DNA from: Cololabis saira | Taxonomy: Eukaryota > Chordata > Actinopteri > Beloniformes > Belonidae | NCBI RefSeq assembly: GCF_033807715.1 | Contig: NC_084590.1 | Location: forward strand, 39,551,005 to 39,615,004 | Length of the DNA stretch: 64,000 nucleotides | Reading direction: 5' to 3' | Shown: in pieces, positions 24,001 through 27,000 of the stretch | Layout: every line of letters begins with the position of its first letter | How positions within the stretch are numbered: the first letter of the stretch is position 1 | Notes under the pieces: generated by a model | The model's input: the letters and a program-made list of their open reading frames with translations, nothing else | Told to the model about the DNA's origin: nothing | Database searches by the model: none | Translations under genes and position numbers: made by a program

Positions 24001-27000
24001 TAACGGTGCTATAAACATGCTCTGGTGAGCTACTCTTCATTCAGTCATTTGTGCTTTCACCAAGTATGACCTTTTCCGCCAATCTACAGGACCGTCTCAG
24101 AAAATTAGAATATTGTGATAAAGTTCTTTATTTTCTGTAATGCAATTAAAAAAACAAAAATGTCATACATTCTGGATTCATTACAAATCAACTGAAATAT
24201 TGCAAGCCTTTTATTATTTTAATATTGCTGATTATGGCTTACAGTTTAAGATTAAGATTCCCAGAATATTCTAATTTTTTGAGATAGGATATTTGAGTTT
24301 TCTTAAGCTGTAAGCCATGATCAGCAATATTAAAATAATAAAAGGCTTGCAATATTTCAGTTGATTTGTAATGAATCCAGAATGTATGACATTTTTGTTT
24401 TTGTAATTGCATTACAGAAAATCACAATATTCTAATTTTCTGAGACAGTCCTGTATAGACCGTCCCTGTCCTCAGCAGTATACAGTCAACCTCGATGTGT
24501 CAGGTCACTGGCAGCTTTATTCATCCATTCATACATTTTCTACACCCCTTATTCCTATACAAGGTTAATTAAATTAAATATGACCTAGTTACCCCCATGG
24601 GACGCCAGTACCTGTGTGTATTCACCTGCATGGCATGCTCTCCTCTCTCTCCCCCGTACTAGTTTACTGGGCTCCATGTTCCCAATGCCCAGAGTGATCT
24701 GGGCCATGGCAGAAGATGGCCTGCTCTTCAAATGTTTGGCTAATATCAGCCCGCGAACCAAAACCCCTCTAACAGCTACAGTAACATCGGGTGTCGTGGC
24801 AGGTGAGGTCATAACCGGCACTCACTAACCCCTCGGGATTCCCACCAGAATCCTGCAAGACTCTCGGCACTCACGACCTCAACACCGGAGCTCAAGCAGA
24901 ACGGAGCGCGCAGAGCAGCGAGCAGGCAGCCCTGCTAAATTAACTTTAATTACTGCTTTGCACAATATTGAGACAGCATCATCCCGAGCAGCGCTGCTAA
25001 TTAACATGCTGAGCCGAGGATGGCTGAGGTCTTGTGTGAAAGTAGAGTTGACAAGCATTTCTTCAAGTTATAAATCTCTGCCTCCTCCTCCTCCTCCTCC
25101 TCCTCCTCCTCCTCCTCCTTCTTCTTCCTTCCTTCCCTCCTTCCTTCCTTCCTTCGTCCTTGGATTAGCCTCCTTGGCTCCATGTTTCCACTGCCACGCA
25201 TTATCTTTGCTATGGCGCGTGACGGCCTGCTCTTCTCGTTTCTGGCCCGCGTCAGTAAGAGGAAGACGCCCGTCATCTCCACCTTTATGGCAGGGCTTTT
25301 GTCTGGTAGGTAGCCGAGACGGGGCCAAATGCAAGAGTGCCCCCTGGTGGAAGGAGGATGGTGGCAAACTCACACAAAAAAATGGATTTGTGCTCTAATA
25401 GTGAAGTAGTTACTTTCTTATTTGTATTTAAAAAAAAGAAGCAATTGTAATATCTGGATGACTCTGTTTTGTACGACGGAGTATTAGGGCCAAACTAAGA
25501 TTAAAAAAAAAATGGAAATTACGAGAATAAAGTCATAATAATATGAGAATAAAGTCGTAAAATTACGAGAATAAAGTTGTAAAATTCTGAGAATAAAGTC
25601 ATAATATTACAAGAATAAAGTCGTAATATATTGATAATAAAGTCGTTATATTTTGATAATAAAGTCGTAATATTACGAGAATAAAGTCGTAATATTAAAT
25701 ATATTATAAATATGTTAATATAACTTCACAAGATGCTCAATATTCCTCATTTTAACACAGGGAGAAGATGCTCTTCCTGTTAGATTTCTCATAAATTATA
25801 TTCTCATAATATTACGACTTTATTCTCATAATATTACGACTTTATTCTCATAATATTACGACTTTACTCTCGTAATGTTGCGACTTTATTCTCGTAATAT
25901 TACGACTTTATTCTCGTAATATTACGACTTTATTCTATTACGACTTTATTCTCGCAACATTATGACTTTATTCTCGTAATTTTACGACTTTATTCTCATT
26001 ATATTATGACTTTATTCTCGTAATTTCCAAAATAAATTTGTCTTAGTTTAGCCCTAATACTCCGTCGTAGTTTTGTGTATGTATGTGTGTGTGTTTTTTG
26101 TTTTTTTAAACATTGATGTGTTATATTCTGGTGTGTTTTGCAGCTGTGATGGCGTTCCTGTTTGACTTGAAGGACCTGGTTGACCTCATGTCCATCGGTA
26201 CTTTGCTGGCCTATACTCTAGTGGCGGCCTGCGTTCTCGTCCTCAGGTACTTTCTCTCTTTGTATTTCCAGCCTAAAGTTTATTCTATTATTACATTGGA
26301 TATTTGATAGACATGTCCTAATAATAAAACAAAAACAGGGAGGGGACCTTAGCCTATTCAGGGAAGGCCAAGGAGAAGGGGTGTGTTTTGAGGTGTGCTT
26401 TGAAACAAGGGGGAGAGAGTTCCAGAGGGTGGGGGCAGCCACATTGAAAGAATAATCCATCGTTTAAAAGAAAATGCTGCTTTCATGAACCAACGTTTTG
26501 GAAAACTTGCAGTTTCTGTGGCTAATGTTGAGCATTTCGTCCTCTTAAGGTACCAACCCGAGCAGCTGACCTTGGCCTACGAGATGGCCAACACCCAGGA
26601 CGAGCAGGACGAGTCTTACAACGAGGGAAACCTTGACATCTTACCTCAGCCACAAGATCACTTCACGATCAGAAACCTCCTGTCTCCTTCCAACACCGAG
26701 CCGTCTCCTCTGTCCGGGCTCGCCGTCAACATTTGCACCAGCGTGCTTGGTGAGACACGGAAACATCCACAGAGGAGTCGGAGCCAAACGATGAAACCTG
26801 GCAACTAATCCAGTACTTCTTGTGTGTTCTCCACCAGGTGTTTTGGTGTGTGTTTTTGCCGTCGTGGCTGTTCAGGGAGGGATGGCGGCCTGGTCTCTGT
26901 CTGTGCTCGCCGTCACCGTGGTGATCTGTCTGATTCTCGTTGTCATCGTGCTCAGGCAGCCACAGAGCAAAGCCAAGCTGGCTTTCAAGGTGAGTTTGCT

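What the first reader, a model, noticed from the sequence alone, without database searches (positions are those of the whole stretch)
24663..25305. slc7a1 carries a CAT-2A-type/CAT-2B-type mutually exclusive exon pair
Two consecutive exon versions occupy the same place in slc7a1 with identical phases (2 in, 1 out). Exon 6A has Glu370 and is 140 nt. Exon 6B has Arg at that place and is 137 nt, one residue shorter before the KTP motif. As I recall, these are the two changes mapped in human SLC7A2 as setting the low affinity of CAT-2A. Using both exons or neither shifts the frame, so the choice is exclusive. The rest of the protein is clearly CAT-1, and I know this arrangement only from SLC7A2. 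If real, the pair predates the SLC7A1/SLC7A2 duplication and was lost from mammalian SLC7A1, and this fish can make a low-affinity CAT-1.
Basis: partly seen in the sequence, partly recalled or inferred. Interest (0 to 1): 0.9.

Follow-up and report, generated by a model that had tools for sequence, protein, structure and literature searches.

The report
Swappable exon pair in fish slc7a1a
A fish arginine-transporter gene carries two interchangeable versions of one exon, predicted to give a high-affinity or a low-affinity transporter; this arrangement was already described in zebrafish and other bony fish in 2020, so it is real but not new.

Summary
On the + strand at 24663-24802 (140 nt) and 25169-25305 (137 nt) lie two homologous, frame-compatible, GT-AG-bounded versions of one coding exon in a complete CAT-1 gene. 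The first carries Glu370. The second carries Arg370 and is one residue shorter. Using both or neither gives an early stop. Outside the exon the protein matches CAT-1 (70.9%) better than recalled CAT-2 (59.8%) or CAT-3 (58.4%), and an mtus2-like gene follows: it is slc7a1a. But it is published. Ellingsen et al. [quoted passage not shown] Low affinity was untested there. The 'predates the duplication' idea fits an eight-row exon tree, three rows recalled, but is weakly tested: the fish's own slc7a2 and slc7a1b were not reached because the genome search did not complete. Two outgroup transporters suggest Arg is ancestral, with Glu (6A) and the one-residue deletion (6B) each derived.

The parts
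20672..21041 (+). slc7a1a coding exon 1 (starts at ATG)
   Evidence: gene model; CAT-1 match
21128..21286 (+). slc7a1a coding exon 2
21371..21542 (+). slc7a1a coding exon 3
22593..22726 (+). slc7a1a coding exon 4
22806..23028 (+). slc7a1a coding exon 5, constitutive, donor for either exon 6
24663..24802 (+). coding exon 6A, Glu370, long loop (CAT-1/CAT-2B type, high-affinity type)
25081..25155 (+). CCT/TCCT repeat, a long pyrimidine tract just upstream of exon 6B; possible regulatory element (inference)
25169..25305 (+). coding exon 6B, Arg370, loop one residue shorter (CAT-2A type, predicted low-affinity type)
26144..26246 (+). slc7a1a coding exon 7, constitutive acceptor; the premature stops of the both-exon and no-exon products fall here
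26550..26749 (+). slc7a1a coding exon 8
26838..26989 (+). slc7a1a coding exon 9
28006..28114 (+). slc7a1a coding exon 10
28835..29004 (+). slc7a1a coding exon 11 with stop codon
40672..63783 (+). mtus2-like gene (pieces at 44128-44247, 45482-45553, 55492-55638, 63124-63192, 63538-63756; the long open frame 40672-42510 probably belongs to it)
   Evidence: tblastn with four recalled MTUS2 pieces, all four hit; no Pfam family at E 0.01 or better in five frames

Best explanation
This is a teleost slc7a1a (CAT-1) gene with the known mutually exclusive coding exons 6a/6b. Splicing 6A gives an ordinary CAT-1 with Glu370 and the long TM8-TM9 intracellular loop. Splicing 6B gives a CAT-1 whose loop has Arg370 and lacks one residue, as in CAT-2A, and is predicted to have lower affinity for arginine and lysine and less trans-stimulation. 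Exclusivity is enforced at least by reading frame, since both or neither gives a premature stop and probably mRNA decay. Shown here: exon anatomy, frames, homology, gene identity. From papers: the zebrafish cDNA of the shorter form, the effect of the loop residues in CAT-2A and GkApcT. Inferred: expression, affinity and decay in this fish.
For: Gene model with canonical junctions and the frame logic. A and B homologous in the right frame, with synonymous-heavy divergence. The best solved relative by sequence, over the whole B-form protein, is CAT-1 (9uat 895.8 bits, 9fqt 895.6; next CAT4 357.5); it passes the NCBIfam cationic amino acid permease model TIGR00906 (863.4 bits, cut-off 681.7). Outside the exon: 392 of 553 identical to the PDB CAT-1, 350 of 585 to recalled CAT-2, 329 of 563 to recalled CAT-3. 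B shares 9 of 48 columns, the gap included, with recalled CAT-2A that none of the four Glu-type exons has (the gap of CAT-2A was placed by hand there, and MAFFT put it elsewhere, which would touch two of the nine). PMC7584565 reports an alternative pair at coding exon 6, residues 352-399 and 352-398, proteins of 651 and 650 aa, and slc7a1a beside mtus2a; here mtus2-like pieces follow the gene. PMC5803215: Arg369 and Asn381 mapped for CAT-2A; GkApcT Arg334Glu lowers the alanine IC50 from 2 to 0.4 uM (passages).
Against: No RNA evidence from this species. The 366-nt A-B intron is long enough to be spliced, so exclusivity by crowding of splice sites is unlikely and the both-exon product may be made and degraded. 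In PMC7584565 the listed lengths differ by one for Slc7a1a of zebrafish, herring and medaka, but a single length (648) is given for fugu Slc7a1a, so the pair may not be complete or annotated in every teleost slc7a1a. Fish transport kinetics are not in the sections read. The species is not identified.
Confidence: 0.93

Rival explanations
1. Exon 6B was copied into slc7a1a from slc7a2 by gene conversion or exon shuffling in the fish line, instead of being inherited from the CAT-1/CAT-2 ancestor.
For: B is nearer to recalled CAT-2A (34 of 46) than to the CAT-1 exon of the PDB (31 of 47) or to its own neighbour A (29 of 47). The fish's slc7a2 could not be fetched, so conversion was not excluded.
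Against: PMC7584565 calls the feature typical of both teleost Slc7a1a and Slc7a1b (fugu Slc7a1a is listed with one length only), so any conversion would predate the split of slc7a1a and slc7a1b or have occurred twice. A and B differ at 30 of 47 third codon positions, so the pair is not young.
Confidence: 0.2
2. The gene is a slc7a2 and the pair is simply the known CAT-2A/CAT-2B pair.
For: The exon pair itself is the one known from SLC7A2.
Against: Identity outside the exon favours CAT-1 by 11 points (CAT-2 row recalled); PDB CAT-1 is the top match (no chain named CAT-2 is among the 34 sequences listed, so CAT-2 was not on offer there); mtus2-like neighbour.
Confidence: 0.02
3. Exon 6B is a decaying or unused relic exon.
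For: Donor CTG/gtaggt and acceptor ttag/C are not ideal. No transcripts from this species.
Against: Open frame and intact junctions; its donor scores 8.28, above 6 of the other 10 donors of the gene on a simple matrix with recalled frequencies; CAT-2A residues kept; the X2 cDNA cloned in zebrafish.
Confidence: 0.05

Closest known systems
Teleost slc7a1a/slc7a1b coding exons 6a/6b (Ellingsen et al. 2020, PMC7584565)
   Same: Same gene, same coding exon, alternative exons giving proteins that differ by one residue in length, Arg marked as the low-affinity residue, mtus2a synteny
SLC7A2 CAT-2A/CAT-2B alternative exons
   Same: Same region between TM8 and TM9, same Glu/Arg switch and one-residue length difference
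   Different: Different paralogue: the rest of the protein is CAT-1
SLC7A1 (CAT-1; PDB 9uat, 9fqt, taken to be mammalian from recall)
   Same: Orthologue; exon 6A matches 39 of 48 residues
   Different: Only the Glu-type exon is in the solved chains; that the mammalian gene has no Arg-type exon is recalled, not tested here

Membership tests
slc7a1 (CAT-1) | Full-length protein nearer to CAT-1 than to CAT-2 or CAT-3 | tested here: met
   70.9% against 59.8% and 58.4% outside the exon (CAT-2 and CAT-3 rows recalled); PDB top match CAT-1
slc7a1a (teleost orthologue) | Lies beside mtus2a | tested here: met
   Four of four recalled MTUS2 pieces hit 44128-63756 on the + strand in order; the single recalled MTUS1 piece tried gave no hit at E 0.01; mtus2a was not told from mtus2b; synteny criterion
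teleost slc7a1a exon 6a/6b pair | Two phase-compatible exons giving isoforms one residue apart, Arg in the short one | tested here: met
   description
teleost slc7a1a exon 6a/6b pair | Both isoforms transcribed | not testable with these tools
   no transcripts of this species held; zebrafish X2 cDNA cloned
CAT-2A-type low-affinity loop | Arg at the 369/370 position and a loop one residue shorter than in CAT-2B | tested here: met
   Arg369 and Asn381 named; lengths 657/658
CAT-2A-type low-affinity loop | Millimolar arginine Km and no trans-stimulation | not testable with these tools
   needs uptake assay
SLC7A2 (CAT-2) | Rest of protein CAT-2 | tested here: not met
   (CAT-2 row recalled)

The most novel reading that the evidence does not exclude
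The affinity-switch exon pair is older than the CAT-1/CAT-2 split: the common ancestor had both exons, each with one derived change (Glu in 6A, a one-residue deletion in 6B, on an ancestral Arg-plus-long-loop background as in AtCAT4 and GkApcT), and tetrapod SLC7A1 and SLC7A3 later lost the Arg exon. Mammalian CAT-1 would then be the simplified state.
Probability: 0.6. Interest if true: 0.4.

Novelty: already known. Interest (0 to 1): 0.2.

Why it matters
If the prediction holds, amino-acid affinity of CAT-1 is set by splicing in fish, so data from mammalian CAT-1 cannot be carried over to fish nutrition and arginine biology without knowing the isoform. The pair also gives a handle on how CAT-1, CAT-2 and CAT-3 divided an ancestral switch. 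The core statement is in print since 2020 as a structural prediction; a kinetic test is what the sections read of that paper do not contain.

Tried and rejected
Considered and rejected: the gene being slc7a2; 6B as a chance frame or relic; a third exon copy in the window (next best hit E 0.12); exclusivity by intron crowding (the A-B intron is 366 nt). A structured-RNA control was looked for: the two largest inverted repeats in the flanking introns (24085-24455; 25518-26026) have other copies in the window, so they look like interspersed elements and no regulatory role is claimed; a smaller one (23482-23534 with 23709-23761) was not followed. Motif scan for 12 short motifs: two TGCATG in the intron before 6A and none in the other two introns; not informative alone. 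ARAGORN found 0 tRNAs and Rfam 0 families at the gathering score in the window. Pfam on five mtus2-region frames gave nothing at E 0.01 or better. One scan of genome contigs with the full B form (16 pattern stretches, 0 relatives) and one of viral contigs with a 70-residue stretch round 6B (43 stretches, 0 relatives) found nothing, as expected for a vertebrate gene. Outgroup polarisation beyond the switch residue is not decisive: of the 19 columns where A and B differ, AtCAT4 agrees with A at 5, B at 6 and neither at 8; GkApcT with A at 3, B at 2 and neither at 14.

Full report
What is there. The window holds a complete coding region of a cationic amino acid transporter on the + strand, 20672-29004, in 12 coding exons of which two are alternatives. 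After the exon ending at 23028 come exon A, 24663-24802 (140 nt), and exon B, 25169-25305 (137 nt), then the exon at 26144-26246. The junctions are GT-AG, and both alternatives enter in phase 2 and leave in phase 1. The A form has 643 residues and Glu at 370; the B form has 642 and Arg at 370, with one residue missing before KTP. Using both gives a stop after 446 residues and using neither a stop after 359; both stops lie in the 26144-26246 exon.

It is not chance. Exon A and exon B find each other in the window at E = 7.4e-15 and 3.2e-15, and the next best hit has E = 0.12. Their 47 aligned codons differ 18, 8 and 30 times at codon positions 1, 2 and 3; 11 codons are identical, 18 differ silently and 18 differ in amino acid.

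Which gene. Against solved structures the full protein (B form) matches CAT-1 best, 895.8 and 895.6 bits, the next being CAT4 at 357.5; no CAT-2 chain is in that list. It passes the NCBIfam model TIGR00906, cationic amino acid transport permease. Outside the exon it is 70.9% identical (392 of 553) to a CAT-1 sequence assembled from the two printed PDB chains, and 59.8% (350 of 585) and 58.4% (329 of 563) to CAT-2 and CAT-3 sequences that I recalled from memory. Four of four recalled pieces of MTUS2 match downstream in order on the + strand, 44128-63756, while the one recalled MTUS1 piece has no match. By PMC7584565 it is slc7a1a, and not slc7a1b, that lies with mtus2a in teleosts. The gene is slc7a1a of a teleost; the species was not identified.

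What it most likely does. The alternative stretch covers the end of TM8, the intracellular loop and the start of TM9 (PMC7584565). In SLC7A2 the same swap makes CAT-2B (micromolar affinity, trans-stimulation) or CAT-2A (ten-fold lower affinity, none). Two residues, Arg369 and Asn381, account for it; in GkApcT, Arg334Glu lowers the IC50 for alanine from 2 to 0.4 uM (PMC5803215, passages). That passage speaks of Asn381 as inserted and does not say plainly which isoform is longer; CAT-2A and CAT-2B have 657 and 658 residues (PMC7584565), so CAT-2A is the shorter, as exon B is here. The prediction is a low-affinity CAT-1. Anatomy and homology are shown; expression, affinity and decay of the wrong splice products are inferred.

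Already known. Ellingsen, Narawane, Fjose, Verri and Ronnestad 2020 (PMC7584565; sections 14, 17 and 22 and the outline read, plus passages; supplements and figures not seen) describe coding exons 6a and 6b of zebrafish slc7a1a, giving isoforms X1 (651 aa) and X2 (650 aa). They cloned a full-length cDNA coding X2 and list X2 among the proteins for which low affinity 'can be hypothesized'. [quoted passage not shown] 4b; for fugu Slc7a1a a single length is listed), link it to CAT-2A/CAT-2B and write that, if confirmed functionally, the paradigm would extend beyond SLC7A2. This is the finding under review, in print, for the gene, the exon and the interpretation. Whether kinetics were measured since then was not found out: one of 12 literature searches was answered (51 papers hold 'CAT-2A', 20 listed).

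Evolution. Two outgroup transporters of known structure, AtCAT4 (as I identify the 'Cationic amino acid transporter 4, vacuolar' of 9hjk and 9sqh) and GkApcT (6f34, which I take to be a form of the 5OQT protein), have Arg at the switch position and no gap against exon A. So Arg looks ancestral, and the Glu of 6A and the deletion of 6B each look derived; over all 19 columns where A and B differ the outgroups favour neither (AtCAT4 5 A, 6 B, 8 neither; GkApcT 3, 2, 14). In an eight-row exon tree (three rows recalled, alignment placed by hand, 48 columns) the Glu-type exons group (SH-aLRT 98.8, ultrafast bootstrap 79), and window B and CAT-2A fall outside that group; their exact branching is not resolved (22.5/34). 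Nine of 48 columns, the gap included, are shared by window B and recalled CAT-2A and by none of the four Glu-type exons, two of which are recalled; two of the nine depend on where the gap is put. Against this reading, B shares residues with the CAT-1 exon and not with A at three columns, and B is a little nearer to the CAT-1 exon (31 of 47) than to A (29 of 47). This fits a pair older than the CAT-1/CAT-2 split but does not exclude conversion from slc7a2. The main text of PMC7584565 holds none of 'ancest', 'shark' or 'lamprey', so this remains open there.

What could not be done. The genome search did not complete (14 tries), the protein database was off, and the spliced protein was not accepted for folding. 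The fish's own slc7a1b and slc7a2, which would test conversion, were therefore not seen.

Verdict: a correct observation of an arrangement already described in teleosts; interest 0.2.

Noticed in passing
24085-24455, second copy near 31513-31725: Near-perfect palindromic element (arms 122 nt, 98% complementary) in the intron before exon 6A; 213 bases of it are 97.7% identical to a stretch at 31.5 kb: a MITE-like interspersed repeat.
   Followed up: partly
25518-26026 and 34948-35327: 22-nt repeat arrays in opposite orientation (AATAAAGTCGTAAT units and their complement) that could form a long hairpin in the intron between exon 6B and exon 7; similar arrays occur again at 35 kb.
   Followed up: partly
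28160-28760, 38601-39194, 50698-51295: Three copies of a ~600-bp interspersed repeat, the other two 94.9% and 95.9% identical to the one in the last intron of slc7a1a.
   Followed up: partly
25081-25155: CCT/TCCT repeat directly upstream of exon 6B; a candidate site for pyrimidine-tract-binding splicing regulators (recalled idea, untested).
   Followed up: no
40672-42510: Single open frame of 613 codons, + strand, no Pfam match; probably the large 5' coding exon of the mtus2-like gene.
   Followed up: partly
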